64,000 nt of DNA from Amycolatopsis rubida. Lineage in GTDB: Bacteria > Actinomycetota > Actinomycetes > Mycobacteriales > Pseudonocardiaceae. Position numbers and translations under genes: made by a program. A model generated the notes under the pieces. It was given only the letters and a program-made list of their open reading frames with translations. It searched no databases and had not been told where the DNA came from. The stretch lies in the NCBI RefSeq assembly GCF_900115345.1, contig NZ_FOWC01000003.1:62001-126000 (forward strand), read 5' to 3'. How positions within the stretch are numbered: position 1 is the first letter of the stretch; each line of letters opens with the position of its first letter. Shown one piece after another: positions 30,387-48,322 of the stretch.

Positions 30387-30821
30387 GGCGATCTGTGCGG
30401 TGCTCCGGCTCGGCTGAATGATCGCCTGCCGCGGCCATCGGAAGACCCGATGGGAGCAACCGGATTTCCTTGCGCTGCCCGGGATGCGGCGGGGTTGCGC
30501 GGAAGGATCGGTTCGCGGCGGGCGTCTGGGCTGGCCGGGTCAGTGCTCGGCGGCGACCGCGTAGCGGCGCAGCTGCTCCTGGCCGGGACCCGGCGACGGC
30601 GGCTGCTGCCCGCCGTGCCGTATCGCATTCGATGCCACAGCCGTCGTTTCCCGATCACGCCCTCGACCCTGAACGGGCCTCAGCAATGCGATCAGGAAGT
30701 GGCTCGCGGCCGCCGTCCCCGCACCGACGACTGGTGTCCAGCGAACCGAACTTTATCCGCACGGCCGCCCGCGGGCCACGACCGAGTGCGGGAACGCCCG
30801 CTGCTCGCCGGCGGAGCGCGG

Positions 30822-35534: not shown

Positions 35535-36445
35535 ATGGCGGTCATTTCCGAGCGCGCGGTGGTGCGCCGGCCGCACGATCGGCTGGGCCCCGGCCGGGCG
35601 ATCTCGCCGCCGGGCCGGCCGCGGGTGCGCAGGCGACCCTCGCTTCCGGACGTCGGAGCGCCGCCCGCGCGACCCGCGAAAGCGGACAAGCCACGCACCA
35701 GCTTCAGAGCCAGGTCACGCATGCCGTGCTGTGGTGGCTGGACCGGATCGCGGCAGCCGACCTTCCGGCGGTCGAATGGCTGATCTGGTTTTCGCGACCA
35801 GCGAGCAAAAGGTGCGCAGCCCGCGCCTGATGCTCGCGCAGAACCAGACCCTGCGCACGCTCGGCATGGGCAGCTTCACCCAGCTGGCCCACGCGATGAT
35901 CGTCGACCCCGCCATGCTGCTGTGGCTCGACGGCAACAGCAACAAAGCCGGCAAGCCGAACGAGAACCTCGCGCGCGAGTCCATGGAGCTGTTCACCCCC
36001 GGCGTCGGGAACTACACCGAGACCGATGTCCGCGAGGCCGCGCGCCCTCACTGGCCGGACCGCGACCCGCGAGAACCCGGCCGCCCGCCGCCACGACTCG
36101 ACGCCGAAGACCGTTCTCGGCCAGACCGCGAACTTCGACGCCGGCTCGTTCGTCGACCTCGTGCTGTCCCGGCCGTCCTCGGCGCCGTTCGTGGCCGGAC
36201 GGCTTTGGTTCCGGCTCGTCTCCGCGACGCCGCAGACGGCGGTATACGGACCAGGCCGCGACATCCGGTCTCTGCTGACCGCGCTGGTCAACGAGGACGC
36301 GTTCCACGACTCGGCGACGTCGTTGGTCAAACAGCCGGTGGAATGGCTCGGCGGCCTGCTGCGCGCGCTCCGCGTCCGTCCGTCCGCGCTCGACGCCAAG
36401 TCCGGCGCCCAGCTGCTGACCCGGCTGCGGGGGATGGGGCAAGTG
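35535..36445 (+). pseudogene. DUF1800 family protein, multiply frameshifted
   Basis: Pieces of one DUF1800 protein appear in order but in different frames: MAVISERAVVRRPHDRLGPG from 35535, then HAVLWWLDRIAAADLP near 35720, KVRSPRLMLAQNQTLRTLGM and MLLWLDGNSNKAGKPNENLA (35800-35970), and finally FDAGSFVDLVLSRPSSAPFV and LRALRVRPSALDAKSG in another frame to about 36440. At least three frameshifts and missing internal sequence are needed to join them. Intact relatives exceed 400 residues and are usually exported. The homology ends abruptly at an inverted response-regulator fragment. Confidence 0.8.
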
Positions 36446-36457
36446 CCCTTCCCGCGC

Positions 36458-36710
36458 GGTGAGCATCACGACCCCCGCCGCGCAGTGCCGCCGGACGACC
36501 CGCAGCAGCGCGAACCCGTCGCGTCCGGGCAACAGCACGTCGAGCACGACCAGATCGGGCCGGAAACGGGCCAGCTCCGCTTCGAGCTGTTCGCCGTCGG
36601 GGCAACGCCCGCCCCGCGAACCCCGCCGCCCGCGACGCGACCTCCACCGAAAGCCGGATCGCTGCGGCGTCCTCGACGACGAGGATGCGCGGTCCGCCTG
36701 GCCATGGCCG
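36458..36710 (-). pseudogene. Response-regulator receiver fragment
   Basis: On the minus strand RILVVEDAAAIRLSVEVASR (about 36700-36630) is the start of an OmpR-type receiver domain. After a frameshift it continues as GEQLEAELARFRPDLVVLDV, then LLPGRDGFALLRVVRRH and GVVMLTARE, containing the phosphoacceptor Asp, and stops at about 36458. The C-terminal DNA-binding domain and the end of the receiver are absent, and the fragment abuts the DUF1800 relic in the opposite direction. 36711-36982 holds nothing else recognisable. Confidence 0.75.
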
Positions 36711-36982
36711 AAGTCCAGGCGGACCGGCGGCACCGCAGCACTGCGCCGAAACGCCATTCGTGAGGCCAGGCAAGAAGAGCTCACGCTGTGCGGAGCGCAC
36801 ACCCCCGACGAGCCACCGGCTGTGGCTGCCCACGGAGCGCTGATGCCAGCAGACACGACCAGCAACCGCGTTGGCGCTTTCGTGCGACCGAGGTTTTCGC
36901 TGAACTGAACACGCGGATTCAACTGGTCGTGGTGCGGCACTTTCCTGATCTGCGGGAACAGCGCCGCTGACCCCTTCGCTGC

Positions 36983-37948
36983 TCAGATCGGGTTCGCGGT
37001 GTGCTGCGCGCCCAGCTGGGAACGCAGCGTGTTCAGGTCGCAGTACGCCCGCGGCGGCAGCCCGAAGCGGCGGCGGAACTCGTTGATGAAATGCGACGCG
37101 CTCGGGTAGCCGACCGCCCGGGACACCGACACGACGGTCCCGTTTCCCCGCACCAGCAGGTCCCGCGCCCTGGTCAACCGCATCTCCTTGACGAACTGGT
37201 ACGGCGACTTCCCGGTGGACTGCCGGAACAGCGCGGTCAGCGCGGACGGGCTCATCGCCACCTGCTCCGCCATGTCGGTGACGGTCAGCGGCTCGGCCAG
37301 GTTGTCCTGGATGAACGTGACGACCCGTGCGACCGGATCGTGGTTCTGCTGCGCCGCGGCGATTTCCAGCAGCCGCTCGTACTGCTCGGCCTGCAGCACG
37401 CGATAGACCATCTCCTGCAGGTACGCCGGCGCCAGGATCCGCCGGTCCGGTCCGGTGGACAGCGCCCGCAGAAACCGGATGACCGAACTCATCAGCCCGG
37501 AGTCCAGCGCCGAGACGAACGCCTTCGACGGGTCCGGCGGGCTGTCGGCCAGCATTTCCGCCCGCCGCTGCTCCAGCATTTCCACCGACACCCGCCGGAC
37601 CACCGCGGGGTCGATCTGCAGCACGAAGGAGAGGAAGGGCTTCGTGAAGGTGGCCTCGAGAATCTCGGCCTGGAAGTGCAGGTGGCTGTTCAGAACCAGG
37701 TAGTTGAACGGGTCGTACCGGTAGGGCTGCCCGTCCACCGTCACGCACTTGCGGCCCTGGCCGACCACGCACAGCGACAGCGACTGGACCTCTTCCCAGC
37801 TCGGCGCGGTCGGCTCGGAGAAGCGGTAGATCGTCAGCCCCGGCCACAGGCCGGTGTTGCCGCCGGCCTCCGGTGCGCGCCTCGCCAGCTCGGCGATCAG
37901 GTCGCCGGGTGTCATCCGGTCTTCCAGCGGCGGAACGGACCGCACCAT
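36983..37948 (-). CDS. AraC-family regulator A flanking the monooxygenase operon
   Basis: A 321-residue regulator with an AraC_N (PF06719-like) sensor domain (about 20-190; EEVQSLSLCVVGQGRKCVTV, YDPFNYLVLNSHLHFQAEIL) and a C-terminal double helix-turn-helix (about 215-310; MAEQVAMSPSALTALFRQST, SVSRAVGYPSASHFINEFRR). ATG 37948 is preceded by GGAGGCAGGC; the frame opens earlier at 37984. It shares obvious similarity with the AraC gene at 46880-47833, so the operon is bracketed by paralogues. It lies at the 3' end of the operon on the same strand, 108 bases after the ABM gene. Likely controls aromatic/alkene oxidation genes. Confidence 0.9.
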   Translation of the reverse strand: MVRSVPPLEDRMTPGDLIAELARRAPEAGGNTGLWPGLTIYRFSEPTAPSWEEVQSLSLCVVGQGRKCVTVDGQPYRYDPFNYLVLNSHLHFQAEILEATFTKPFLSFVLQIDPAVVRRVSVEMLEQRRAEMLADSPPDPSKAFVSALDSGLMSSVIRFLRALSTGPDRRILAPAYLQEMVYRVLQAEQYERLLEIAAAQQNHDPVARVVTFIQDNLAEPLTVTDMAEQVAMSPSALTALFRQSTGKSPYQFVKEMRLTRARDLLVRGNGTVVSVSRAVGYPSASHFINEFRRRFGLPPRAYCDLNTLRSQLGAQHTANPI

Positions 37949-38056
37949 GCCTGCCTCCGACGTCACGGAGCCGCCCCGCCGCACCGGCGACTCTGCCGTT
38001 TGGACCTGGGAGTTTACCCTCTTCGGACGAGCGAAGCGAGGCTCGTTCGAGTCCGC

Positions 38057-38347
38057 TCACCCGATGGTCTCGAACTCCCGCACGCTCCGCTCGGCCAGGT
38101 TCGGGATCGCTTCGCCGAGCACATGCTTCCGGAACGCGTCGGTAGCGCGGTGGTCGGCGTACCCGGAGGCGTCGACGTACTTCTCGTACAGCACAAAGGT
38201 GTCCGGGTCGTCCCGGCTGACGTGTGCCTGGAACTCCAGCATCTTCTCTTCGGCCCGGTTGCCGGGCGTGACCGTTTCCAGGATCTGCCGGATTTTCTCC
38301 GCCTGCCCCGGCTTCGCGACCCAGGTGGCGACGACGACGTAAGCCAT
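38057..38347 (-). CDS. Antibiotic biosynthesis monooxygenase (ABM)-domain protein
   Basis: A 96-residue single-domain ABM-fold protein: YVVVATWVAKPGQAEKIRQI, NRAEEKMLEFQAHVSRDDPD and FVLYEKYVDASGYADHRATD are the family pattern (ferredoxin-like barrel, dimeric). Family members oxidise quinols or bind aromatic or haem ligands without cofactors; no specific activity is readable. It is 35 bases downstream of the uL22-like/DUF59 gene and is the last member of the monooxygenase operon, where it could process a dihydroxylated product. Confidence 0.85.
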   Translation of the reverse strand: MAYVVVATWVAKPGQAEKIRQILETVTPGNRAEEKMLEFQAHVSRDDPDTFVLYEKYVDASGYADHRATDAFRKHVLGEAIPNLAERSVREFETIG

Positions 38348-38382
38348 GAACCCTCCGAACTGCGCAGAATTGTCAGAACTGC

Positions 38383-39117
38383 TCACAAGGTGCTGAACCC
38401 GATGGCGCGCAACTGTTCGCGGCCGTCGTCGCTGATGTCCGAGGGCCGCCACGACGGGGACCAGACCCACACCACGCGGAAGTCCGCGACGATCCCGGGG
38501 TCTTCCAGCAGCGCCGTCCGGATCTGGTCTTCCATGATCCCCGTCAGCGGGCAGGCGGGCGAGGTCAGCGTCATGGTCAGGGTGGCGATGTCGTGCTCGT
38601 CCACGGTCACGCCCCGCACGAAACCCAGGTCGACGACGTTGACCCCCAGGTCGGGGTCTAGCACGTCGTAAAGCGCCTCCCGCACCGGAACCGACCGCGC
38701 GTCCGCCGGCGCACTGTCGAGGGCGGGTTCGTCCGCCGCCTCGACGGGCGCCGGTACGGCGGCGGCCTCGTACGCACCTGCCGGTTGCAGTTCGACCCGC
38801 ACGTCGGCTGTCTCGCTGCTGATCCAGTCTGCCTTGCCGTGTGCCTTCCGCCGCACCCGCACGATCGGCTCCGCAGGCGTGGCGGAACCGCCGGCCACGA
38901 TCAGGTGCCCGGGCGAAAGCCCGGCTCGGGCGGCGTTCGCCAGTGCCCGGTCGAGCACCCTGGCGACCGGCTCGCACGTACGACCAGGCCCCAGTCGCAG
39001 CTTCGCGACCGCGTCCACCACGCTCAGCCCACGCACTCGCGCCAGCGCCGCCCGGGCGTCGGCGACTGTCACCCTCGTCTGGGACGCGAGCGTTTCCAGC
39101 ACTGCAAGGGTCGTCAC
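38383..39117 (-). CDS. uL22-like domain fused to a DUF59 (MIP18/PaaD-like) iron-sulfur assembly domain
   Basis: A 244-residue fusion. Residues ~10-112 look like ribosomal protein uL22: VADARAALARVRGLSVVDAV, VARVLDRALANAARAGLSPG, RVRRKAHGKADWISSETADV match the L22 landmarks (K/R-x-VxxLIRGxxVxxAL, SAIANAEHN, PRAKGRADxIxKRTSHIxVxV). A Pro/Ala linker (about 115-140) leads to a DUF59 domain (about 140-244): VREALYDVLDPDLGVNVVDL, TLTSPACPLTGIMEDQI (conserved Cys) and VVWVWSPSWRPSDISDDGRE. DUF59 proteins mature iron-sulfur or diiron enzymes. Its place in the monooxygenase operon suggests a maturation or assembly factor for the Rieske or diiron protein; why an L22-like fold is attached is unknown. 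Confidence 0.83.
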   Translation of the reverse strand: MTTLAVLETLASQTRVTVADARAALARVRGLSVVDAVAKLRLGPGRTCEPVARVLDRALANAARAGLSPGHLIVAGGSATPAEPIVRVRRKAHGKADWISSETADVRVELQPAGAYEAAAVPAPVEAADEPALDSAPADARSVPVREALYDVLDPDLGVNVVDLGFVRGVTVDEHDIATLTMTLTSPACPLTGIMEDQIRTALLEDPGIVADFRVVWVWSPSWRPSDISDDGREQLRAIGFSTL

Positions 39118-39147
39118 GGCAGTTCCTCCTCGGTGAACTCAGCGGGC

Positions 39148-40383
39148 TCAGGCCCGGGATGCTGTCTTGGTGCGCGGCATCAGCCGTTTCAGCGGCAGCG
39201 ACTCGTCGGCGAGCTGCTCGGCCGTCACCTCGTGCGGTGCGAACAGCATCCGGCGGGCGGCGAGCACGTCACCGGGCCGGTTGAGCGAGATGACACCCTG
39301 AATCCGGCCGTCGGCCAGCGAGAACGCCGAGAAGCTGCGATCGGCCAGCCGGCCGCGCAGCACCACCGAATCGAAGGCGCCCATACGGCCGGTCGACTGC
39401 AGACTGTGCTCGTACTGGTCGGACCAGAACCAGTGCGGCTCCTCGAACGGCGTCGCCTCGCCGGCCAGGTTGGCGGCGACGTTCGCGCCCTGGCGCACGG
39501 CCGTGTCGTGGTGCTCGACCCGGATCCGCGTGCCGTAGCGCGGGTGGTGCTGGGCCGCGACGTCACCGGCCGCGTACACGTGCGGTGCCGACGTCCGCCC
39601 GTACTCGTCGACCGCGAGCCCGCCGTTCGCCACGGCGAGCCCGGCGTCCCGTCCCAGCTCGCCGTTCGGCAGCGAGCCGATGCCGACCACCACCAGATCG
39701 GACTCCACGCGGTCGCCGCGACTGGTGGTCAGCACGAAGCCGTGCCGGCCGCGGTCGACAGCCGTGACGTGCTCGCCCGCGCGGATTTCCACGCCGCGTT
39801 CGCGATGGATGTCCATCAGTATCGCGCCGATCGCCGCGCCGAGCACCCGCGCGAGCGGAGCGGGCTCCGGCTCGAACAGGGTGACTTTGGCGCCGAGCGC
39901 GGTGGCGGACGCGGCCACCTCGCACCCGATGAACCCGGCGCCCAGGATCGCGATCCGTTGCGCCGTCGCCAGTTCGGCACGCAGCCGTCCGGCGTCGGCG
40001 GCCGTGCGCAGGTAGTGGATGCCCTCGCCGTCGAACCCGGGAAGCCGCCGCGGCCGCACGCCGGTGGCCAGCACCAGGTCGTCGTAGCCGAGACGTTCCC
40101 CTGTGGACAGTCCTACGCTTTGGCCGGCCACGTCGAGGGACACAGCGCGCACGCCGAGCCTCAGCTCGACGTCGTTGGCCGCGTACCAGCCGGGTTCCTG
40201 CGGCCGCACCAGCTCGGGCGGTCCGGTCAGGAACTCCTTCGACAGCGGCGGCCGCTCGTACGGCACCCCCGGCTCCTCCCCGATGAGCACGACGTCGCCG
40301 TCGAAGCCCTTTTTGCGCAGGTGGGCGGCGGCCGACGCGACCGCGACACCGCCGCCCACGAGCACACAACGCCGGGTCGTCAT
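39148..40383 (-). CDS. NADH:Rieske-ferredoxin reductase (putidaredoxin-reductase type)
   Basis: A 411-residue FAD enzyme predicted to pass electrons from NAD(P)H to the Rieske protein encoded upstream. FAD motif CVLVGGGVAVASAAAHLRKK (second Gly of GxGxxG is altered to GGGVAVA), NAD motif RIAILGAGFIGCEVAASATA, second FAD motif PHVYAAGDVAAQHHPR, plus YERPPLSKEFLTG. Unlike TmoF/IsoF-type reductases it has no N-terminal plant-type 2Fe-2S domain. ATG 40383 overlaps the Rieske stop. Residues near the C-terminus (FEEPHWFWSDQYEHSLQSTG) match the oxygenase-coupled reductase family. Confidence 0.9.
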   Translation of the reverse strand: MTTRRCVLVGGGVAVASAAAHLRKKGFDGDVVLIGEEPGVPYERPPLSKEFLTGPPELVRPQEPGWYAANDVELRLGVRAVSLDVAGQSVGLSTGERLGYDDLVLATGVRPRRLPGFDGEGIHYLRTAADAGRLRAELATAQRIAILGAGFIGCEVAASATALGAKVTLFEPEPAPLARVLGAAIGAILMDIHRERGVEIRAGEHVTAVDRGRHGFVLTTSRGDRVESDLVVVGIGSLPNGELGRDAGLAVANGGLAVDEYGRTSAPHVYAAGDVAAQHHPRYGTRIRVEHHDTAVRQGANVAANLAGEATPFEEPHWFWSDQYEHSLQSTGRMGAFDSVVLRGRLADRSFSAFSLADGRIQGVISLNRPGDVLAARRMLFAPHEVTAEQLADESLPLKRLMPRTKTASRA

Positions 40384-40706
40384 CCGAGGTCCACCCGGAT
40401 CGTGCCGTCCTCGTCCACCCGGCAGGGGAACGAGGCGAGCCGGCAGTTGTCCGGGTTCACGCCGGAGCCACTGCGGGCGTCGAACACCCACATGTGCCGG
40501 GAGCAGGTGAGCGTCTCGCCGTCGAAGTCGCCCTCGTCGAGCGCCCAGGCCTGGTGCGGGCAGCGGTTCCGGTACGCCCGCACGTCGCCGTCGATGTTCA
40601 TCAGCAGGACCTTCTCGCCGCCGACCTCGACGCCCGCCATCTCGCCTTCCCACAGCTCGTCGAGCCGCATGGCCTCCCGCCACTGCCCGGTCACCGCTCC
40701 GCTCAC
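40380..40706 (-). CDS. Rieske [2Fe-2S] ferredoxin of the monooxygenase (TmoC-like)
   Basis: A 108-residue electron carrier between reductase and hydroxylase. The cluster ligands are in RCPHQAWALDEGDF (C-x-H) and LTCSRHMWVFDARSG (C-x2-H), with T4moC-like flanks (DELWEGEMAGVEVGGEKVLL, GSGVNPDNCRLASFP). Start GTG 40706 overlaps the beta-subunit stop (GTGA); a Met 13 codons later is a weaker choice. Length and spacing match toluene-4-monooxygenase Rieske proteins rather than dioxygenase ferredoxins. Confidence 0.93.
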   Translation of the reverse strand: MSGAVTGQWREAMRLDELWEGEMAGVEVGGEKVLLMNIDGDVRAYRNRCPHQAWALDEGDFDGETLTCSRHMWVFDARSGSGVNPDNCRLASFPCRVDEDGTIRVDLG

Positions 40707-41734
40707 CGCGCCGCACGCATCCCTTCCGGCTCGAAGATCGGCTCGTGGAACGCCTCGCGGGCGGCCTTCGCGCCGGCGGCCACCTCGCTCGCCGGGCGGC
40801 CGCGCTCCGGCCGGGTCGCGAGCAATTCGCCCAGCCCGGCCGCCGCCGCGTCCGCGATCGGCGACCAGCGCTCGATCCAGCGGCGCAGCACGTCGGCGTT
40901 CGACGGCCGCTGTTCGACGGCGAACCGCGCCAGCGCCGAACTCCACCGGTTGCGCCGGTTGTTGTCCTCCTGCAGGAACGACAGCAGCAGCCAGGACTCT
41001 TCGTCGCGGTTCTCGCGCGAGACCTCTTTGAACTGCCTCACCAGCACGTCGTCGAACGTCGGCGCCAGCACCAGGTTCAGCGCGGCAAACGCCTCGCCCC
41101 AGTCGTAGCTGACGAGCGCCTTCTCTACCGCGCGCCGGGCCGGCTGCCAGGCTTCGAGCGTTTCCCACAGCCGCCGCTCGGCAGTGCCGGCTCCGCTGTC
41201 CGGGTGCGCGATCTGCAGCTCGCGGGTGCGGTAGGCGGTCAGCGTGACCCGGCGCAGGTAGTCGGCCGTGGCGAAGCCCGCCGTGTTGGTCACATACGAG
41301 GTCGGGGCCAGGTAACCGAGATACGCCTGGATCTGCTGACAGCCGTGCAGGAGGTAGCGCGACGGCGTGAACAGCGAGGTCAGCAGGGCCAGCTGCCCGG
41401 GCGCGAGCGCGGCGTCCGAGCCCGCGTACTCGTCGAGCACGCCACCGGTCTTCGCCTCGGCTTCGGCCTGGGTCGTGACGTATGTCTTGTAGGTCAAGGC
41501 ATCCGGGTCGCGGAAGGCGTCCCAGTCGTCGACCTGCAACGGCGATTTGTCGCGGTAGGTCAGAAACCACAGGTTCGCCGGCGAGGACGGGTTCTGCTCG
41601 AACGCGCCCGTGCGGTTCTTGCGCAGCGTCCAGTTCTGGGCGTGCGTGACGATCTCGTAGTCGCTCGGCATCCGGCGGATGTCGCCGAACGCGCTGAACG
41701 TCTTGCGCGGCCTTGTCTTTTTCGGCTGTGTCAT
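40703..41734 (-). CDS. Diiron monooxygenase hydroxylase beta subunit (TmoE-like)
   Basis: A 343-residue all-helical subunit of the (alpha-beta-gamma)2 hydroxylase. It has the ferritin-like fold of the alpha subunit without the metal ligands. Typical TmoE features: RKTFSAFGDIRRMPSDYEIV at the N-terminus, NLWFLTYRDKSPLQVDDWDA, and the helical core YLGYLAPTSYVTNTAGFATA, ALVSYDWGEAFAALNLVLAP. Start overlaps the effector stop by 4 bases. Gene order alpha, gamma, effector, beta, Rieske, reductase differs from tmoABCDEF. Confidence 0.93.
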   Translation of the reverse strand: MTQPKKTRPRKTFSAFGDIRRMPSDYEIVTHAQNWTLRKNRTGAFEQNPSSPANLWFLTYRDKSPLQVDDWDAFRDPDALTYKTYVTTQAEAEAKTGGVLDEYAGSDAALAPGQLALLTSLFTPSRYLLHGCQQIQAYLGYLAPTSYVTNTAGFATADYLRRVTLTAYRTRELQIAHPDSGAGTAERRLWETLEAWQPARRAVEKALVSYDWGEAFAALNLVLAPTFDDVLVRQFKEVSRENRDEESWLLLSFLQEDNNRRNRWSSALARFAVEQRPSNADVLRRWIERWSPIADAAAAGLGELLATRPERGRPASEVAAGAKAAREAFHEPIFEPEGMRAAR

Positions 41735-42048
41735 GCCCGCACTCCTTTACCGGCCGCCGCGGCTTTCCGTGCCGAGATCCGTTCCCAGACGATCGCGCCG
41801 CTCGTGGTGATGGCGCGCCCGGCGAAGGAGGACATCATGGTTTCGAGCGAGCGGATCTCGAACTCGCTGCCGAGGTAACGCCGCAGCGTCTCCTCGGTCA
41901 GCACCACCCGGTCCTCGCCCTGGACGCGAACGTAGGCGCCCCGGTCGACGACCTCGATCTCCTTGTCCGGGTTGTCGTCCTCGATCGCCGCGATCACCTG
42001 TTCCACCTCGTCGCCCATCCGCAGGATCGGGCCCACTGGGTTCTTCAC
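41731..42048 (-). CDS. Monooxygenase effector/coupling protein (TmoD/MmoB family)
   Basis: A 105-residue small effector that binds the hydroxylase and gates oxygen and substrate access. NPVGPILRMGDEVEQVIAAI and the N-terminal DNPDKEIEVVDRGAYVRVQG, LRRYLGSEFEIRSLETMMSS follow the MmoB/DmpM/TmoD pattern. The start is GTG 42048, overlapping the gamma-subunit stop (GTGA); the same frame upstream is antiphase to the alpha gene. It has no cofactor. Confidence 0.92.
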   Translation of the reverse strand: MKNPVGPILRMGDEVEQVIAAIEDDNPDKEIEVVDRGAYVRVQGEDRVVLTEETLRRYLGSEFEIRSLETMMSSFAGRAITTSGAIVWERISARKAAAAGKGVRA

Positions 42049-42347
42049 CGTGCTCCCTCCCGCAGGTCGTACTCGACCCGGACATGGTCGAGCGGGCCGA
42101 TGCCCGCCTCGGCCACGGTCAGCTCCGGAGCCAGCCGCCGTCCTTGGTGGAACACGACCTTTTCCGCGTCCTGGGCCCGCACCCGCTTGCCCTCGACGTG
42201 GTGGGCGACCGCGGCCGCCACTTCCCGGATCGTGTCCGCGGTGGTGACCGGAACCAGGATCTGCACGAAGTCGTCCGCGAAGATGGCGTTGAGCGGCACC
42301 AGCTGCGGCGCCTGGTCCTGCGGGTCCGGCTCGACGGTTTCGGCCAT
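42045..42347 (-). CDS. Hydroxylase gamma subunit (TmoB-like, ubiquitin fold)
   Basis: A 100-residue subunit of the hydroxylase with the ubiquitin-like fold of TmoB. PLNAIFADDFVQILVPVTTA, VAAAVAHHVEGKRVRAQDAE and LAPELTVAEAGIGPLDHVRV parallel TmoB (entry strand, VAYH helix, terminal MTIAESGLNP block). It lies 3 bases downstream of the alpha gene and overlaps the effector gene by 4, so subunit synthesis is coupled. Confidence 0.9.
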   Translation of the reverse strand: MAETVEPDPQDQAPQLVPLNAIFADDFVQILVPVTTADTIREVAAAVAHHVEGKRVRAQDAEKVVFHQGRRLAPELTVAEAGIGPLDHVRVEYDLREGAR

Positions 42348-42350
42348 GGC

Positions 42351-43880
42351 TCAGCCCTCCCCGGCGCCGGCGGCCAGCGCCAGGCCCTTCGCGGGGCGGC
42401 CGACGTAGTCCCTGGTCCAGGCCTCGTAGTCCGGGTCGTCGCCCATCACCTCGGGCGTGAGTCCCATGTGGGCGAGGATGCCGCCGACGTCCATCGGCTG
42501 GATCTGCCCGGCGAGGAACCGGTCGATCAGCGTCTCGTGGTTGACGTTGTCCCGGTCCTTCCACCAGATCTGGCGGCAGGCGTTGGTGCAGAAGTGGTGC
42601 GTCTTCCCGTCGTAGTCCAGCTGCCAGGACGGGACGCGCCAGCGGCCGGACCGGGTCGGCACGGCATTGCAGCAGGGCAGGTTGCACATGCTGCACAGCC
42701 ACGGCAGCGTCTCGGGGAGCGTGGCCTCGACGTTGTTGGCGTTGATGTTGTCGATGATCACGTCCCACTTGTCGCCGTAGACCTGCTCCCAGTTCGGGTA
42801 CTTCTCGCGCAGCCAGTCGCGCTCGTCCTTGCTGACCGCGGCCTTCGGGCGCCACCACAGCGTCGGGCGCCAGAACCACAGGCCCATGTGCAGCCCGTGG
42901 TGCCAGGTGTCGAGGCCGCGCATGAACTCGTCCCAGAACCACGGCTTCTTCAGCCCGTAGTCCTCGATCGTGTGCACGAACTGGTCGACGATCCACTCCT
43001 CCATGAACTCCCGGTAGGACTGCTTCCGGTGCTCCAGCGGGGTGTAGTAGTCCATCGCCGGGCCGGTCAGCGCGGCGAACGCGCGGGCCGAGCCCCAGAA
43101 GTTCTTGTCGATGATCCACTGGGCGCGCACCGGGTCGTGCTCGACGAGGATCTCCATCGTGGGGCCGCCCTGCTGCGAGTGGCGGGCCTCGTCGGTCTGG
43201 ATCGAGGAGATCATGTTGGCGAAGTTCACGTCGCCCGCTTCCAGCGCGTCGGCCGAGAGCGCGACGAACTGCAGGTTGGTGAACCCGGTCTCGAAGGTGA
43301 ACGGCAGCGCGATCGCCAGGTCCACCACGTTCGGGGCGATCATCATGCCGTCGAACAGGTTCCGCAGCGAGATCGGCACCCAGTTGTCCATGTGGAAGGT
43401 CTTCTGGGTCCAGTCGTACTGCGGGTCCTTCTTGATGAACTCGTGCCCGAAGAACGTGGTGATCTGCGCGTGCCGCAGCTCGTCCAGCTGGCCGAAGGCG
43501 GCCATGTTGCGCCAGGCCGCGTTGAGCCCGAACCGCGCCATCTTCAGTTCGCCGAGCACCGCGGCGTACTCGACCAGCGCGACGCCGCCGAAGTGCATCT
43601 TGGTCGAGGACTTCCAGCCCTCGTCGAGGTGATCGAAGGTGGTCGACCGCTGGAGCGCGGCCTTGACCGCGTACGCGGACTGCTCCTTGTCGCGCTGGGT
43701 CGTCACGTAGTCGGGGTAGCTGACCTTGTAGTCCTCTTCCCAGTCCAGCCAGGCCTCCCGCGGCACCTTGCCGGTGCCGCTGTGCCATTCGGGGAACACG
43801 GCCTCGTCGTCGACGTAGCTGTAGGTCCAGTCGACGTCGCGGACGAACCCCTGCCACTCTTCCCGCTTCAGCAGCGTCAT
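42351..43880 (-). CDS. Diiron monooxygenase hydroxylase alpha subunit (TmoA-like)
   Basis: Catalytic subunit, 509 residues, expected to hydroxylate an aromatic ring or epoxidise an alkene. The six diiron ligands fall at exactly the TmoA positions: Glu104 (ALVEYAA), Glu134 and His137 (QLDELRH), Glu197 (TFETGF), Glu231 and His234 (TDEARH). Thr201, Phe176, Phe196 and Phe205 of the toluene-4-monooxygenase pocket are conserved; positions 100 and 103 are both Val (Ile and Gly in T4MO), which should change pocket shape and regiochemistry. A C-terminal Cys-rich segment (LCSMCNLPCCNAVP, HHFCTNACRQIWWKD) resembles the YHS-like tail of the family. ATG 43880; AGAAGGGAAGC lies upstream. Confidence 0.95.
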   Translation of the reverse strand: MTLLKREEWQGFVRDVDWTYSYVDDEAVFPEWHSGTGKVPREAWLDWEEDYKVSYPDYVTTQRDKEQSAYAVKAALQRSTTFDHLDEGWKSSTKMHFGGVALVEYAAVLGELKMARFGLNAAWRNMAAFGQLDELRHAQITTFFGHEFIKKDPQYDWTQKTFHMDNWVPISLRNLFDGMMIAPNVVDLAIALPFTFETGFTNLQFVALSADALEAGDVNFANMISSIQTDEARHSQQGGPTMEILVEHDPVRAQWIIDKNFWGSARAFAALTGPAMDYYTPLEHRKQSYREFMEEWIVDQFVHTIEDYGLKKPWFWDEFMRGLDTWHHGLHMGLWFWRPTLWWRPKAAVSKDERDWLREKYPNWEQVYGDKWDVIIDNINANNVEATLPETLPWLCSMCNLPCCNAVPTRSGRWRVPSWQLDYDGKTHHFCTNACRQIWWKDRDNVNHETLIDRFLAGQIQPMDVGGILAHMGLTPEVMGDDPDYEAWTRDYVGRPAKGLALAAGAGEG

Positions 43881-43894
43881 CGGTGCTTCCCTTC

Positions 43895-44368
43895 TCAGTC
43901 GACTTCGAGGTGGCCGAGCTGGCGGTTGATGCCGGCCCCGTCCCAGTAGGCGGAGATCCGGTCGATGAGCCCGTCGCCATCGACGTGGAAGATGAACAGG
44001 TGGGGCTCGCTGAACTTCTGTCCCCGGGGCTCCGCGGCACCCCAGGCGAGCTGCTGGCTGCCGCCGATGTCGCACCGCACCACCACATCGCCGTTGTCGT
44101 TCGCGTCGACGCTGTGCACGTCGGCGAACAGGTCGGGGAACGAGGCGATCAGCCCGACCCAGATGGTCTTGCCGACCGTCTTCACCTTGCCGTCGCCACG
44201 CAGCACACGCTGCTTTCCCCACACCTCGAAGGGCACGTAGAAGAAGTCGGCGTTGTCGGCGCACAGATCGGTCATCGCGTCGACGTCGTGGCGCCGGTAG
44301 GCGTCGAAGAAGGCGGTGACCTGTCCGGCGGCTTCCCGGCTCCGGCTCCGCGGTTCGGTTGTTGTCAT
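43895..44368 (-). CDS. NTF2/SnoaL-like protein 1 of the monooxygenase operon
   Basis: A 157-residue single-domain cone-fold (SnoaL/NTF2) protein: VTAFFDAYRRHDVDAMTDLC, FYVPFEVWGKQRVLRGDGKV, HLFIFHVDGDGLIDRISAYW. Such domains act as small isomerases/hydrolases or ligand binders; a pocket Asp/His pair is suggested by YRRHDVDAM and AYWDGAG but not provable here. It lies 14 bases upstream of the alpha gene and 10 bases after a second NTF2-like gene. A role on the oxidised product (for example an epoxide) is inference. Confidence 0.85.
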   Translation of the reverse strand: MTTTEPRSRSREAAGQVTAFFDAYRRHDVDAMTDLCADNADFFYVPFEVWGKQRVLRGDGKVKTVGKTIWVGLIASFPDLFADVHSVDANDNGDVVVRCDIGGSQQLAWGAAEPRGQKFSEPHLFIFHVDGDGLIDRISAYWDGAGINRQLGHLEVD

Positions 44369-44378
44369 CGGATTCCCC

Positions 44379-44861
44379 TCACACGAGCGAGATCTGGTCG
44401 AGGCGCTTCACCGCGAGCCGCCGGTAGAGCTGGTTCTGGCACCAGTACGCGTCGACGCCGGTGATGCGGTCACCGGCGACGGTGAACCGCCAGGCCTGGT
44501 CCACGTCGAGGTGCTTCTCCTGGTTGATCGCGCCGAGGTAACCCGCCGCCTGGGTGCCCTCGACCTTCAGCTCCGCGGTGACCACGGACCCGGTCTCGAT
44601 GAGGTTCTTCACCGTCACGAGCAGGTCCGGGAACGCCGTGGCGGTTTCGGTGAGGAACGCCCGCAGTTCGGCCGCACCGCCTTCGCTCAGCCCGGTCGGA
44701 TGGATGTCCACGCGCACCGAATCGTCCACAACGGACAGTGCGGCCCCGGCGTCACGATTGCCGAACGCGGTCAGGAAAGCCGACACGATCTGCGTGGGGG
44801 TCGCCTCCGGGGCGGTCTCGGCCCGGTCTTCGGACTGGTCCCCGCGGGTGAAGAGTTTCAT
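44379..44861 (-). CDS. NTF2/SnoaL-like protein 2 of the monooxygenase operon
   Basis: A 160-residue cone-fold protein distantly paralogous to its neighbour: PTQIVSAFLTAFGNRDAGAA, LRAFLTETATAFPDLLVTVK, WRFTVAGDRITGVDAYWCQN. The first ~20 residues are charged and low complexity. ATG 44861 overlaps the DJ-1/PfpI stop. Two consecutive NTF2-like genes in a diiron monooxygenase operon may encode a heterodimer or two steps on the same product (inference). Confidence 0.83.
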   Translation of the reverse strand: MKLFTRGDQSEDRAETAPEATPTQIVSAFLTAFGNRDAGAALSVVDDSVRVDIHPTGLSEGGAAELRAFLTETATAFPDLLVTVKNLIETGSVVTAELKVEGTQAAGYLGAINQEKHLDVDQAWRFTVAGDRITGVDAYWCQNQLYRRLAVKRLDQISLV

Positions 44862-45877
44862 CGCTGTCCCACCGCCTTCAGCAGGGCGTCGGCCGTCGCC
44901 TCGGTGGAGGCGGGGTTCTGGCCGGTGATCAGGTTCCGGTCCACGACCACGTGCGAGACCCACGCCGACGGCCCGTCGTCGAACACCGCACCCGCGTTCT
45001 TCAGCGCCGTGTCGACGTACCACGGCAGGCCGAGCTTGCCCGGCTCCGTCTGGTCTTCCTCTTCGTCGGTGAAGCAGGTGAGGCGGTAGCCGTCGAAGAG
45101 CCATTGCCCGTCTTCGCGTTCGGGGGCCGACAGCAGCAGCGCGGGACCGTGGCACAGCGAAGCGATCGGGGCCTGCTTGTCATGCAGCACCTTCAGCAGC
45201 CTGGCCACGTCGGGGTTGTCGGAGAGGTCGACCATCGGCCCGTGGCCGCCCGGGGCGAAAACGGCGTCGAACTCGGCGAGCTGCTCGTCGCTCAGGTCCG
45301 CCAACGAGGCGGGCTGCCGGAAACCCGGGATGGCGTCCAGCTTCGCCTTCCGGTCGGCGGCCAGCTGCCGGCTCGCGGCGTCCAGTTCGGCGACCGCGGC
45401 CCGGATCTCCTCCGCGGGCAGACCGCCGTCGAGACCGTCGTCCGTCATCACGTCGGCGAGCTGCCGGTCCTCGCGCCAGGCGATCCGGGCGGCCTTGCTG
45501 ACCAGCGCGTGGGCCTCGACCGGCGAGAACCCGCGGGTCTTGAGCCGCTCGGCGAGCCGCCGCGCGGCGACCAGGCCCAGCTCGGTGTTCTGGTGCAGCG
45601 TGATCCGGATGTCGTCCGGGTCGCGGTGGAACGTGCGGGTCACGGACGCGAAGAAGTCCTGATCCGGTTCGGGGTAGTGGAAAAACGGCTCCAGCCCGTA
45701 GGGGTCGGCGAACGGCGGCTCCCCGTCGGGCGTCAGCACCACCACCTCGGCTCCGGCGTCGACGAACCGCTCGTACGGTTTGACGGCTTCTTCGGCGAAG
45801 TAGCCAGTAGTGTGCCGGCTGCCGTCGGCGAGTTCGATCTCCTTCGCACTCGAGACGAGGTAGGCGATGCGCGCCAT
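44858..45877 (-). CDS. DJ-1/PfpI-superfamily protein with large insertion, first gene of the monooxygenase operon
   Basis: A 339-residue type 1 glutamine amidotransferase-like protein. The nucleophile elbow ASLCHGPALLLSAP holds the conserved Cys, with FDAVFAPGGHGPMVDLSDN before it. A ~100-residue insertion (about 80-185; TELGLVAARRLAERLKTRGF, DDGLDGGLPAEEIRAAVAEL) separates the first strand from the core, making it much longer than usual (~200-240). Possible roles are glyoxalase-like detoxification, hydratase or chaperone activity. It is divergent from a second DJ-1 gene across a 245-base promoter region. Confidence 0.87.
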   Translation of the reverse strand: MARIAYLVSSAKEIELADGSRHTTGYFAEEAVKPYERFVDAGAEVVVLTPDGEPPFADPYGLEPFFHYPEPDQDFFASVTRTFHRDPDDIRITLHQNTELGLVAARRLAERLKTRGFSPVEAHALVSKAARIAWREDRQLADVMTDDGLDGGLPAEEIRAAVAELDAASRQLAADRKAKLDAIPGFRQPASLADLSDEQLAEFDAVFAPGGHGPMVDLSDNPDVARLLKVLHDKQAPIASLCHGPALLLSAPEREDGQWLFDGYRLTCFTDEEEDQTEPGKLGLPWYVDTALKNAGAVFDDGPSAWVSHVVVDRNLITGQNPASTEATADALLKAVGQR

Positions 45878-45959
45878 GTGACCTCCAGATGAACGTGCGG
45901 TTTCGGTTGGCGTGCCGAAACGCTAGCCGCCGGATGATCCCGGCCGCATCGAAGATTCC

Positions 45960-46020
45960 TGCGGAAGATGTGCGGATTCCGGCAACCGGTGCGGGTTCCG
46001 GTCGAGGTCTGCAAGATTCG
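45960..46020. promoter_or_regulatory. Direct repeats in the divergent monooxygenase promoter (candidate AraC sites)
   Basis: TGCGGAAGAT (45960-45969), TGCGGATTCC (45971-45980), TGCGGGTTCC (45990-45999) and TGCAAGATTCG (46010-46020) recur at 19-20 base steps, the spacing of AraC/XylS direct-repeat sites. They lie between the divergent DJ-1 genes and match the pair upstream of AraC gene B. Confidence 0.65.
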
Positions 46021-46122
46021 TGCACGAACCAGCTCGCGCCGCGGCCGCGGCGGTTACTTTCGGGACGGTCTTTCCGGCCGGCGGCGCCGGAGTCGTCTCT
46101 TTTCGAGAGCGAGGTTTTCCCC

Positions 46123-46845
46123 ATGACACGCGTACTGTTCGCGGTGTCCGGCTCGGCCCACTGGACACTGGCCGACGGCACCCGGCACCCGTGCGGCTTC
46201 TGGCCGGAGGAACTGGCGGTGCCGCACAAGATCTTCCGCGACCACGGTTTCGATCTCGTGATCGCCACCCCGGGCGCGGTGGTCCCCACCGCCGACGAGG
46301 CCGGTTTCAGCCCCGAGATGAACGGCGGCTCGGCCGAGCCGGGACAACGGTTCCGCGCCTACCTCGAAAGCATCGCGAGCGAACTCGGCGCACCCGCCGA
46401 CCTGAACGAGGCCGACCCCGCCGAGTTCGACTTCGTGTTCGTCCCAGGCGGACACGGGCCGATGGAAGATCTGGCTGCCAGCAAGGAATTCGGCAGGCTG
46501 ATCGCGGAGTTCGACGCCGCGGGCAAACCCGTGGCCGCGGTCTGCCACGGGCCGGCGGCTCTGCTGCCGGCGACGGACGCCGACGGCCGGTGGCTGTTCG
46601 CGGGCCGCCGGTTGACCGGCTTCAGCAACGTCGAGGAAGGTCAGGTCGGCTTCGCCGACAAGGCGCCGTGGCTGCTGGAGGACCGCCTTGGTGACGGAGG
46701 CGGGCAGTTCGAGAAGAGCGCCAGCGCTTGGGAGCCCCACGTGGTGGTGTGCGGAAACCTTTACACCGGACAGAATCCGGCCTCGTCGGCCCCGTTGGCC
46801 GAGCGGCTCGCCGGGGCGCTGAAACCGGTCGAGACCGTTCACTGA
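46123..46845 (+). CDS. DJ-1/PfpI-superfamily protein, divergent from the operon
   Basis: A 240-residue protein close to Hsp31/YajL-like DJ-1 members: TRVLFAVSGSAHWTLADGTR, FVFVPGGHGPMEDLAASKEF and the Cys nucleophile in VAAVCHGPAALLPATD. CGFWPEELAVPHKIFRDHGF is the lid region. It resembles the first operon gene (both have the GHGPM block and end with GQNPAS) but lacks the insertion. GAGCGAGG precedes ATG 46123. Probably coregulated with the operon through the shared promoter region; glyoxalase III-type or hydratase activity is possible. Confidence 0.88.
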   Translation: MTRVLFAVSGSAHWTLADGTRHPCGFWPEELAVPHKIFRDHGFDLVIATPGAVVPTADEAGFSPEMNGGSAEPGQRFRAYLESIASELGAPADLNEADPAEFDFVFVPGGHGPMEDLAASKEFGRLIAEFDAAGKPVAAVCHGPAALLPATDADGRWLFAGRRLTGFSNVEEGQVGFADKAPWLLEDRLGDGGGQFEKSASAWEPHVVVCGNLYTGQNPASSAPLAERLAGALKPVETVH

Positions 46846-46853
46846 GCCGTGCC

Positions 46854-46879: not shown

Positions 46880-47833
46880 TCACCCGTTGCGGACGCCGAA
46901 CTCCGCGCGAAGCGCGCGAAGATCGGAATACGCGCGCGGGGTCGCCCCGAACCGCCCGCGGAACTCGTTGATGAAATGCGACGCGCTCGCGTAGCCGACC
47001 GCCTTCGACACCTGAGTGACACTCAGCCTTTCTTCGATCAACAGATCGCGCGCGCGGTTGAGCCGCATCTCCTTCACGAACTGGTACGGCGATTTCCCCG
47101 TCACCTCACGGAAGAGGTGCGAGAACGCCGATGGGCCGAGCGAAACCCGTTCCGCCAGGTCGCTTACCGTCAGCGGCTCGGACATGTTGTCCCGCACGTA
47201 GGAGACGACCTCGCTCACCGGGTTGCGCGCCACCTCGGACGCCGCGATCTCCAGCAGCCGCGAGTACTGCTCGGCTTGCAGGATCCGGTACACCATCTCG
47301 GCCAGGTAGATCGGCGCCAGCACCCGGCGGTCCGCGCCGGTGCCCGTCGCACGGAGGAACCGCAGGGTGGCCGACATCAGCGTGCAGTCCAGCGGGGTGA
47401 CGAACGCCCGCTCGGACTGATTGCGGGCCATCCGGTCGAACGTCGTGGCCCGCCGGTCGAGGACGTCGGCCGACACCCGCCGCACCAGCGCGGGGTCCAC
47501 CTGCAGCACCAGCGAAAGGAACGGCCTGGCCGGGGTGGCTTCGAGAATCTCCGCGGTGAAGTGCTGGCGGTCGCTCAGCACCAGGTAGTTGAACGGGTCG
47601 TACGCGTGTGCGCGCCCGTCGGCGACCACGCGCTTGCGCCCCTGCGCGATGATGCACAGCGACAGGGACCGCACCTCTTCCCACTGCGGGGCGACGGGCC
47701 GGGTGTAGCGGTAGAAGGTCAGTCCCGGCCAGCCACCGGAGTTGCCGCCGAGCGCGGGCGCGCGGTCCGCGATTTCGGCGAGCAGGTCGCCTGCCGTATG
47801 GCGTTCTTCGAGGGGCCGGAGCAGGTCCGTCAC
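46880..47833 (-). CDS. AraC-family regulator B of the monooxygenase locus
   Basis: A 317-residue paralogue of the regulator at 36983-37948. Sensor domain AraC_N with EEVRSLSLCIIAQGRKRVVA and YDPFNYLVLSDRQHFTAEIL; DNA-binding part with LAERVSLGPSAFSHLFREVT and QVSKAVGYASASHFINEFRG. GTG 47833 has GGGAGG eight bases upstream; the open frame to 48076 lacks support. Two TGCGGATTC repeats 21 bases apart lie 74-104 bases before the start and match the array in the operon promoter, so autoregulation and operon control by this protein are likely. Confidence 0.9.
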   Translation of the reverse strand: MTDLLRPLEERHTAGDLLAEIADRAPALGGNSGGWPGLTFYRYTRPVAPQWEEVRSLSLCIIAQGRKRVVADGRAHAYDPFNYLVLSDRQHFTAEILEATPARPFLSLVLQVDPALVRRVSADVLDRRATTFDRMARNQSERAFVTPLDCTLMSATLRFLRATGTGADRRVLAPIYLAEMVYRILQAEQYSRLLEIAASEVARNPVSEVVSYVRDNMSEPLTVSDLAERVSLGPSAFSHLFREVTGKSPYQFVKEMRLNRARDLLIEERLSVTQVSKAVGYASASHFINEFRGRFGATPRAYSDLRALRAEFGVRNG

Positions 47834-47906
47834 GTCGTTCGCCTCCCGTCTGCGGGCCCTCGTCGGCCCAGAACCCCACGGTAGGCCGCAGCCGATCCTG
47901 CGGGAC

Positions 47907-47937
47907 TGCGGATTCCGGGTGGCTGTCTGCGGATTCG
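47907..47937. promoter_or_regulatory. Two TGCGGATTC direct repeats upstream of AraC gene B
   Basis: TGCGGATTCC at 47907-47916 and TGCGGATTCG at 47928-47937 are 21 bases apart, two helical turns. The same decamer is at 45971-45980 in the operon promoter. The rest of 47834-48322 shows no other feature. Confidence 0.65.
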
Positions 47938-48322
47938 CGTGCCGCCGGCGCAGGCGGTCCGGCCCGGGGATGGTCCCGCAGGGCACGATGCTCGCGGCCG
48001 TCGGCCTCGGCATCCGCCGCAGCGGCTGTTCACCCGCCATCAGGTCGGCCGCGAGCACCGGCAGGCCCAGGACCACGAGATCGCGGTGTGCGGGATGCCG
48101 CTGGGCTCCCGGCTCGGGTGCTCCGGGTCAACCAGCTGAGGACTGCCCCGGAATCGGTGTCGGCCTTCGCGCAGGTCATCGGACTCAAGGAGCCGGGGCG
48201 GGGATTGATATCCGCCGCGTTGCTGCTGGTCCGGCGTCCGCGCCTTACACTTTCGTGCGAGCAGGGAGCCGACGGAGCTGAGCTGGCGTCGCGCTCGCTA
48301 CTTCGCACCGAAGCGAGGCAGT

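What the first reader, a model, noticed from the sequence alone, without database searches (positions are those of the whole stretch)
38383..39117. Ribosomal uL22-like domain fused to a DUF59 iron-sulfur assembly domain inside a monooxygenase operon
The first ~100 residues align by eye with uL22 landmarks (ANAARAGLSPGHLIV against SAIANAEHN...DDLxV; RVRRKAHGKADWISSETADV against PRAKGRADxIxKRTSHI), and the second half is a DUF59/MIP18 domain with its conserved Cys. DUF59 proteins serve Fe-S or diiron maturation, so the operon context fits; a ribosomal-protein fold used as an adaptor would be new. An L22-like duplicate recruited as a nucleic-acid- or partner-binding module for cofactor assembly is a testable idea.
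Basis: partly seen in the sequence, partly recalled or inferred. Interest (0 to 1): 0.78.

Follow-up and report, generated by a model that had tools for sequence, protein, structure and literature searches.

The report
L22-like protein of monooxygenase operons
A gene in a bacterial gene cluster for an oxygen-using enzyme encodes a descendant of the ribosomal protein L22, usually joined to an iron-cofactor assembly domain, which suggests that a part of the ribosome was turned into a helper for building that enzyme.

Summary
The 244-aa protein at 38383-39117 (-) has a true uL22 domain (Pfam E 8e-15, twice the cut-off) and a SufT-like DUF59 domain (8e-16). Its AlphaFold model has the complete uL22 fold with the long hairpin (Z 14.6 to M. 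tuberculosis uL22).

Thirty loci with L22-like genes were read (some near-identical); all 30 lie beside subunits of one clade of toluene-monooxygenase-type operons in Actinomycetota. Of 8 such operons found through their alpha subunit alone, 8 have it; of 15 with more distant alphas, none was seen (2 cut by contig ends). Thirteen of 13 genomes checked also have a normal uL22.

L22 and DUF59 are fused in 23 loci, separate genes in 4, both forms in 1; in 2 related loci L22 stands without DUF59. The fusions form one clade, the other forms branch outside.

Most ribosomal basic residues are lost; a hairpin-tip motif (RVRRxAHGxAxWI) and a new cysteine are conserved under purifying selection.

Most likely it is a dedicated maturation factor: DUF59 links to Fe/Fe-S assembly, the former ribosomal finger docks on a monooxygenase component. 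Fold, recurrence and selection are shown; client and chemistry are inferred. My open-access searches found no description.

The parts
38383..39117 (-). L22-DUF59 fusion gene (GTG start), 244 aa
38788..39087 (-). uL22-like domain, residues 11-110
   Evidence: Pfam PF00237; model and fold comparison
38974..38976 (-). codon of Cys48, present in 30 of 30 L22-like domains aligned; the aligned site is Ala or Ser in 33 of 33 uL22 domains compared
38821..38862 (-). hairpin-tip motif VRVRRKAHGKADWI, residues 86-99, the most conserved 14-residue stretch of the fusion
38707..38772 (-). linker, residues 116-137, pLDDT under 50
38494..38685 (-). DUF59 / FeS_assembly_P domain, residues 145-208, with Cys189 at 38551-38553
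   Evidence: Cys189 in 19 of 19 fusions listed
39148..40389 (-). FAD-dependent ferredoxin reductase
   Evidence: Pyr_redox_2 and Reductase_C
40380..40703 (-). Rieske [2Fe-2S] ferredoxin
   Evidence: PF00355
40703..41734 (-). hydroxylase beta subunit (Phenol_Hydrox)
41731..42054 (-). MmoB/DmpM effector protein
42045..42347 (-). TmoB-like gamma subunit
42351..43889 (-). diiron hydroxylase alpha subunit, closest in PDB to toluene/o-xylene monooxygenase (1t0q and variants)
43895..44368 (-). SnoaL-like protein 2
44379..44897 (-). SnoaL-like protein 1
44858..45877 (-). DJ-1/PfpI family protein
46126..46845 (+). second DJ-1/PfpI family protein, divergent
38057..38347 (-). ABM (antibiotic biosynthesis monooxygenase-like) protein after the fusion
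36983..37984 (-). AraC-type regulator at the end of the cluster
46880..47968 (-). second AraC-type regulator at the other end

Best explanation
The gene encodes a dedicated maturation factor of a toluene-monooxygenase-type diiron enzyme system. Shown: a uL22-derived protein is a regular member of this operon family, usually encoded with a SufT-like DUF59 partner, as two genes or as one fused gene, and the trees fit one recruitment and one fusion; the cells checked have a normal uL22 besides; the gene is under purifying selection, most strongly at the hairpin tip. Inferred: the DUF59 half, through Cys189, links the operon to the cell's Fe/Fe-S assembly machinery as SufT and PaaD are thought to do, and the L22 half, through the conserved finger (R87, R89, R90, H93, W98) and the Cys48 patch, docks on a component of the monooxygenase so that cofactor is delivered there. 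The likeliest clients are the Rieske ferredoxin, the only Fe-S protein recognised among the operon's subunits, or the apo-hydroxylase. Cys48 may be the second thiol that SufT lacks.
For: Fold and domains. Recurrence: 13 of 13 loci of the genome scan carry the full fusion with monooxygenase genes, and all 30 loci read lie beside subunits of the same operon. Specificity, without circularity: searches with the alpha subunit alone gave 8 alphas at 73% identity or more, and 8 of 8 operons have the L22 gene (in G024 alpha and fusion lie on two contigs). The other 18 of the 26 alphas at 74% or more were met through L22 searches and are no test. Of 15 operons with alpha at 57% or less, 0 show an L22-like or DUF59 gene, though in L075 and L077 a contig end cuts the downstream side and L072 and L073 hold alphas without other subunits. 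Extra L22 domains are otherwise rare: 2 of 296 genomes of the phylum show more than one match (in some, only the first 15 candidates were scored), and in one of these (G900) both copies score as normal uL22. Selection: dN/dS of the L22 part 0.15-0.30 in 8 of 11 pairs, and no amino-acid change at the tip in 4 of 4 pairs among the window, G009, G662 and A. circi. Evolution: fused rows are one clade at 100/99 on the alpha tree and at 98/97 on the L22 tree. DUF59 beside a diiron monooxygenase has a precedent: PaaD is needed in vivo, not in vitro, for PaaABCE (PMC4498308, passages). SufT binds SufS, SufU and clients through its cysteine, has one conserved cysteine and did not bind Fe (PMC9045647, passages; PMC4982691, passages and section 6). 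In 10 loci the Rieske ferredoxins (net -9 to -16) and alphas (-23 to -28) are acidic, while the finger is basic.
Against: Two related loci (L146, L147; same genus) have the L22 gene but no DUF59 nearby, so the L22 protein must have a use without a neighbouring DUF59, at least there; whether those genomes hold another one was not tested. Related operons with Rieske ferredoxins lack both, so neither is needed for Rieske maturation in general. Cys48 is kept in the two loci without DUF59, so it need not pair with Cys189. No complex was modelled and no contact shown; the relative placing of the two domains is unknown (pTM 0.46). The charge argument is weak, as most bacterial proteins are acidic.
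Confidence: 0.48

Rival explanations
1. RNA-guided maturation: the hairpin finger still binds RNA (23S rRNA near the tunnel, a precursor, or the operon's mRNA), and the protein brings DUF59 to the place where the enzyme is being made.
For: Tip residues shared with uL22 are kept (R87, R89, A92, G94, A96, I99). In B. subtilis the whole tip of the L22 hairpin contacts the 750-loop of 23S helix H35, and position 90 (aligned here with His93 by hand) is R, Q, K or H in many bacteria (PMC4423224, passages). A leader alignment of 10 loci folded slightly better than column shuffles (-0.9 against -0.1, sd 0.3, 60 shuffles), but with a poor alignment.
Against: Of 11 positions basic in at least 97% of 33 uL22 domains, the fusions lose or mostly lose 6 (12, 20, 29, 86, 101, 102; 19 domains). 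In the wider set two tip positions that are Arg in all 33 uL22 vary: K91 is Lys in 22 of 30, K95 in 16 of 30. New invariant residues (R90, W98, Cys48) are not uL22-like. No Rfam match reaches its cut-off in 36500-47000.
Confidence: 0.2
2. Hydroxylase assembly or effector factor of its own: the L22-like protein works like MmoD or DmpK, holding the apo-hydroxylase open or regulating it, and DUF59 serves a separate Fe-S client.
For: L22 without DUF59 in L146 and L147, and L22 as a separate gene in 5 loci. L22 is present in 8 of 8 operons found through alpha. The closest relatives in PDB, ToMO and T4MO, have no such assembly gene, as far as I recall.
Against: The two are fused in 23 of 30 loci and the fusions form one clade, which suggests a joint action. 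No contact shown.
Confidence: 0.2
3. Alternative ribosomal protein: the fusion replaces uL22 in some ribosomes when the operon is on and places DUF59 near the tunnel exit.
For: Complete uL22 fold with full-length hairpin; tip partly conserved.
Against: A normal uL22 is present in 13 of 13 genomes examined. Net charge of the domain falls from a mean of +10.9 (33 uL22) to +3.3 (20 L22-like). Basic residues of the body and hairpin base are lost. It scores 41.9 against the 73.65 cut-off of the rplV equivalog model.
Confidence: 0.05
4. A duplicate without a function in the operon, kept by hitchhiking.
For: One fused copy in G000 (L006:9528-10316) has lost the hairpin tip, and one copy in G714 (L132) is frameshifted.
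Against: Purifying selection and an almost invariant tip; presence in 8 of 8 operons found through alpha. The tip-less copy sits beside an intact separate L22 gene.
Confidence: 0.03

Closest known systems
uL22 (ribosomal protein L22, PF00237)
   Same: Complete fold including the long hairpin, Z 14.6 to 5v7q_S at 34% identity over 112 residues; tip residues R87, R89, A92, G94, A96, I99.
   Different: Lies in a monooxygenase operon, fused to or beside DUF59; fails the rplV equivalog cut-off; lost most body basic residues; has Cys48, R90, W98; its genomes also have a normal uL22 (13 of 13).
SufT (DUF59; M. tuberculosis Rv1466, S. aureus SufT)
   Same: DUF59 fold and conserved cysteine; 53% identity to 5ird in the fold comparison, E 1.1e-33.
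   Different: Apart from 27 housekeeping-type DUF59 proteins of relatives at 100/99; carries or neighbours a uL22 domain; not in a suf operon. The DUF59 module types described in PMC4982691 (section 6) name no L22; the N-terminal motif of its S2 type is left unidentified.
PaaD of phenylacetyl-CoA epoxidase
   Same: A DUF59 protein encoded with a diiron multicomponent monooxygenase and needed for it in vivo (PMC4498308, passages).
   Different: No L22 domain that I know of; the window protein scores under the PaaD equivalog cut-offs (72.9 of 180, 39.9 of 108.15).
Toluene/o-xylene and toluene-4-monooxygenases
   Same: Six-component system; alpha aligns over 493 residues with 1t0q (566 bits).
   Different: Extra genes beside it: two SnoaL, DJ-1/PfpI, ABM, AraC and the L22-DUF59 gene.
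Assembly proteins MmoD and DmpK (recalled, not tested)
   Same: Possible role as operon-encoded assembly factors.
   Different: Not compared here by sequence or fold.

Membership tests
uL22 ribosomal protein | Pfam Ribosomal_L22 above cut-off | tested here: met
   55.3 bits against 28
uL22 ribosomal protein | uL22 fold with long hairpin | tested here: met
   separate L22 protein of L006, (its alignment held one true uL22 among 15 rows)
uL22 ribosomal protein | bacterial rplV equivalog model (TIGR01044) | tested here: not met
   41.9 bits against 73.65
uL22 ribosomal protein | conserved basic residues of uL22 | tested here: not met
   6 of 11 near-universal basic positions lost or mostly lost in 19 L22-like domains
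uL22 ribosomal protein | the genome's only uL22 | tested here: not met
   13 of 13 genomes have another, normal uL22 at 128 bits or more
uL22 ribosomal protein | present in the 50S subunit | not testable with these tools
   needs ribosome proteomics
DUF59 / SufT | Pfam FeS_assembly_P above cut-off | tested here: met
   58.5 bits against 23.5
DUF59 / SufT | motif DPE-X26-31-T-X2/3-C (PMC9045647) | tested here: inconclusive
   DPD in place of DPE at 154-156; T185 and C189 present at fitting spacing (sequence; invariant in 16 rows)
DUF59 / SufT | SUF_assoc equivalog model (TIGR02945) | tested here: not met
   64.1 bits against 143.4
PaaD | PaaD equivalog models | tested here: not met
   72.9 of 180 and 39.9 of 108.15
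PaaD | Paa operon context | tested here: not met
   toluene-monooxygenase-type operon instead
Toluene-monooxygenase-type diiron system | alpha, beta, TmoB, effector, Rieske ferredoxin and reductase genes | tested here: met
Toluene-monooxygenase-type diiron system | diiron-site ligands of alpha | tested here: inconclusive
   candidate His ligands H140 and H237 in 18 of 18 clade and 15 of 15 outgroup alphas; that these are ligands is recalled, Glu ligands not checked
Toluene-monooxygenase-type diiron system | oxidises toluene or a similar substrate | not testable with these tools
   substrate unknown

The most novel reading that the evidence does not exclude
A ribosomal protein left the ribosome to become a standing component of an oxygenase system: a uL22 paralogue, at first encoded by its own gene, was turned into a finger-shaped docking or assembly factor for a diiron monooxygenase, gained a new cysteine, and later fused to a SufT copy, giving a two-thiol Fe or Fe-S delivery protein that travels with the operon between genera.
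Probability: 0.3. Interest if true: 0.88.

Novelty: new variant of a known kind. Interest (0 to 1): 0.72.

Why it matters
Bacterial uL22 is, as far as I know, described only as a ribosomal protein, so a lineage recruited into monooxygenase operons would be a rare case of a ribosomal fold gaining a metabolic job. Separate genes, L22 without DUF59, and fusions give a natural series to compare. How soluble diiron monooxygenases and their Rieske ferredoxins receive their metal in vivo is, to my knowledge, poorly known; an operon-encoded factor tied to one clade makes the question testable and may help the expression of such enzymes in other hosts.

Tried and rejected
Chance similarity: rejected by Pfam, phmmer and fold comparison. 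Extra metal site in the hydroxylase as the reason for the factor: Cys and His columns compared between 18 clade operons and the outgroup sequences found (15 alpha, 13 beta, 12 Rieske, 1 reductase, 12 effector, 13 TmoB); the zinc-finger-like cysteines of alpha are in all 18 and in 11 to 15 of 15 outgroups, the Rieske ligands in all, and distinctive columns (for example alpha C407, Rieske C94) gave no clear new site. RNA partner in the operon: Rfam gave three matches, all under their cut-offs; a leader alignment of 10 loci folded at -0.9 kcal/mol against a column-shuffled mean of -0.1 (sd 0.3, 60 shuffles), a small excess on an alignment too poor to count as structure. Viral contigs: none by pattern scan. 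Plasmids: one record with the window's L22 domain, Rhodococcus koreensis NZ_CP070611.1; none with the separate L22 protein of L131. The genome scan used patterns that miss separate L22 genes; these came from later searches, so 30 loci is a lower bound. In 327 genomes of the family (Pseudonocardiaceae by my reading) 16 have an L22-like match at 64 bits or more, the normal uL22 matches lying at 50.3 bits or less. Papers on P. dioxanivorans with toluene or diiron monooxygenases: none with locus tags (0 papers), and a listing of 12 of 55 whose titles do not concern this operon, none read.

Counting. The 30 loci are window, L006, L039, L041-L054, L089, L090, L096, L131 and L145-L153; L040 is the same contig as L046 and L095 the same as L042. 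Several are near-copies (L045, L046, L090; L041, L048, L049; L044, L053). The 30 domains are not the same set: they hold both L22 domains of L006 and leave out L090 (its sequence, with the Cys and the tip, is). Rows dropped: one uL22 locus (L104) as too short; G000b left out; near-duplicates and G000b left out of the conservation means; L154, from a genome with the same match scores as L151, fetched but not analysed; L132, a decayed copy, not counted. In the listings some genes were hidden by overlap with over-extended ORFs (for example the reductase in L147, found).

Full report
Observation. The ORF at 38383-39117 (minus strand, 244 aa) holds two real domains: Ribosomal_L22 at residues 11-110 (E 8.1e-15, 55.3 bits, cut-off 28) and FeS_assembly_P/DUF59 at 145-208 (E 8.1e-16). 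Sequence search of PDB finds SufT Rv1466 (5ird) and mycobacterial uL22. The AlphaFold model (mean pLDDT 75, pTM 0.46, 14 rows) shows the whole uL22 topology with strands 72-90 and 96-112 as the long hairpin, a linker 116-137 with pLDDT under 50, and DUF59. It matches M. tuberculosis uL22 5v7q_S with Z 14.6, rmsd 4.3, 112 residues, and DUF59 3lno_F with Z 15.2, rmsd 2.5, 105 residues. The separate L22 protein of L006, modelled alone (pLDDT 86, pTM 0.74), gives Z 15.3 to 5v7q_S; one true uL22 was among its 15 alignment rows.

Context. On the minus strand in order: DJ-1/PfpI, two SnoaL proteins, alpha, TmoB, effector, beta, Rieske ferredoxin, FAD reductase, L22-DUF59, ABM protein, AraC regulator. 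Alpha is closest in PDB to toluene/o-xylene monooxygenase (566 bits). The host genome G000 is probably an Amycolatopsis: genomes of its genus (G024, G781) hold contigs with the lengths of the A. echigonensis and A. circi records (8738 and 132601 bases). It has a normal uL22 elsewhere and a second operon of the same kind on contig C23.

Recurrence. A pattern scan of genome contigs with the L22 domain gave 13 loci, all in Actinomycetota by their titles (Amycolatopsis, Streptomyces, Pseudonocardia, Rhodococcus, Nocardia, Arthrobacter and two MAGs), each with a full fusion beside monooxygenase genes. With further searches 30 loci were read: 23 fused, 4 with separate L22 and DUF59 genes (L131, L145, L148, L149), 1 with both forms (L006) and 2 with L22 but no DUF59 nearby (L146, L147; best DUF59 match at chance level; the two genomes share a genus). 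Some of the 30 are near-copies. All 30 lie beside monooxygenase subunits; the alpha was read in 26, all 74-100% identical to the window's.

Linkage test. Searches with alpha alone in 394 genomes of the class, 397 of the order and 80 of the genus (overlapping sets) gave 8 alphas at 73% or more (two in G000, one each in G009, G024, G662, G714, G781, G808), and 8 of 8 operons have the L22 gene (in G024 alpha and fusion lie on two contigs that end inside the operon). The class search also gave 15 alphas at 57% or less; 0 of 15 show an L22-like or DUF59 gene within the stretches fetched, with two (L075, L077) cut by contig ends on the downstream side and two (L072, L073) being alphas without other subunits. 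The other 18 operons with alpha at 74% or more were met through L22 and are no test. In 296 genomes of the phylum only G000 and G900 show more than one L22 match at E 0.001 (in some genomes only 15 candidates were scored), and both copies in G900 score like normal uL22 (129.6 and 131.5 bits). Thirteen of 13 genomes with the operon that were checked also have a normal uL22 at 128 bits or more.

History. L22-like domains form one clade apart from uL22 (100/99; 100/100). On an alpha tree with the 15 outgroup operons, the 26 L22-bearing operons are one clade (100/99); within it all 21 fused rows are one clade (100/99), and the separate and L22-only forms branch outside. The fused rows are also one clade on the L22 tree (98/97). 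The DUF59 of the 19 fusions and of the separate gene in L006 lie apart from 27 housekeeping-type DUF59 proteins of relatives (100/99), with the fusions one group at 97/68. The simplest reading is one recruitment of a separate L22 gene, with a SufT-like partner, and one later fusion; loss of DUF59 in L146/L147 is as possible as its never having been there. Several branches are long, so the order among the separate forms is unsure. The operon moves: 99.9% identity over 8.7 kb between P. dioxanivorans and A. echigonensis, 98% over about 15.5 kb between a R. koreensis plasmid and R. jostii.

What changed in L22. Net charge falls from a mean of +10.9 (33 uL22, 1 dropped) to +3.3 (20 L22-like). Of 11 positions basic in at least 97% of uL22, the fusions and the separate L22 of L006 (19 domains) keep 5 (15, 87, 89, 91, 95) and lose or mostly lose 6. 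In the wider set of 30 domains, C48, R53, R87, R90, G94, W98 and T103 are invariant, H93 and R89 are in 29, but K91 is Lys in only 22 and K95 in 16. None of the 33 uL22 domains has Cys at the site of C48. The tip 86-99 is the most conserved 14-residue stretch of the fusion (mean majority share 0.985, n = 14; best DUF59 stretch 0.959). dN/dS of the L22 part is 0.15-0.30 in 8 of 11 pairs; the others are 0.35 and 0.46 for very close pairs and 0.39 for the pair with the tip-less copy; the tip has no amino-acid change in 4 of 4 pairs among the window, G009, G662 and A. circi. In 9 of 19 fusions, the window's included, C48 and C189 are the only cysteines; the others have one or two more. The copy in G000 that has lost the tip sits beside an intact separate L22 gene, as if one working tip per operon suffices.

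How it may work. SufT of M. tuberculosis binds SufS, SufU, aconitase and SufR through its single reactive cysteine and did not bind iron (PMC9045647, passages); both SufT papers note that carriers usually have two or more cysteines (passages). PaaD, a DUF59 protein, is needed in vivo but not in vitro for the diiron PaaABCE complex (PMC4498308, passages). I infer that this protein is a dedicated maturation factor whose L22 half supplies a docking finger and perhaps a second thiol. The client is not known: the Rieske ferredoxin is the only Fe-S protein recognised among the subunits, and the hydroxylase needs its diiron centre. The L22-only loci show that the L22 half can act without a fused or neighbouring DUF59, which also fits an assembly factor for the hydroxylase. 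RNA binding remains open: in B. subtilis the hairpin tip of L22 contacts the 750-loop of 23S rRNA (PMC4423224, passages), and part of that motif is kept.

Novelty. Searches of the open-access library for L22 with DUF59 and monooxygenase (one unrelated paper), L22 with fused and DUF59 (listing of 15 of 125 papers), DUF59 with diiron monooxygenase (one paper, on the Paa pathway), toluene monooxygenase with L22 (none), L22 paralogue terms (none), toluene monooxygenase with PfpI or DUF59 (one unrelated paper) and SufT with Rieske monooxygenase (none) showed no description of this protein; most subscription journals are not held. The R. koreensis copy is annotated only as an iron-sulfur cluster assembly protein. 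As a DUF59 helper of a diiron monooxygenase it is a variant of the PaaD kind; the uL22 part has no precedent that I know of.

Noticed in passing
L131:8878-9255 and 9286-9615 (Pseudonocardia dioxanivorans CB1190, second operon): Separate L22-like and DUF59 genes directly after the reductase, in a genome that also has a fused copy (L045).
   Followed up: yes
L146:9188-10039 and L147:9280-9906: Monooxygenase operons with an L22-like gene but no DUF59 nearby; these ORF starts run into the reductase gene, so the true L22 start lies further in.
   Followed up: partly
L132:9012-9704 (G714): Decayed second copy of the operon whose fusion is frameshifted within DUF59.
   Followed up: partly
L041:10994-13877; also L048 and L049: In Rhodococcus and Arthrobacter the operon is followed by serine hydroxymethyltransferase and succinate-semialdehyde dehydrogenase genes, possible hints to the substrate.
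   Followed up: no
L072 and L073 (genome G142): Two alpha subunits at 55-57% identity with no other monooxygenase subunit recognised within about 7-9 kb: apparently orphan alphas, the nearest relatives without L22.
   Followed up: no
L085 (G000 contig C19): A third toluene-monooxygenase-type operon in the host genome (alpha 46-47% identity), without L22 or DUF59.
   Followed up: no
window 31072-34003 (-): Cluster of glycosyltransferase 2, a PIG-L deacetylase joined to a methyltransferase, and an acyl-CoA dehydrogenase-like protein.
   Followed up: no
window 33958-35124 (-): Second FAD-dependent ferredoxin-type reductase near the operon.
   Followed up: no
window about 29900-30400 (-) and 35700-36460 (+): Reading frames that look like remnants of a phospholipase C-like and a DUF1800-like protein; names recalled from the look of the sequence, not searched.
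   Followed up: no
L006 about 10374-10589 (-): Short remnant that looks like the start of a CitE-type lyase between the separate DUF59 gene and the second fusion; recalled, not searched.
   Followed up: no
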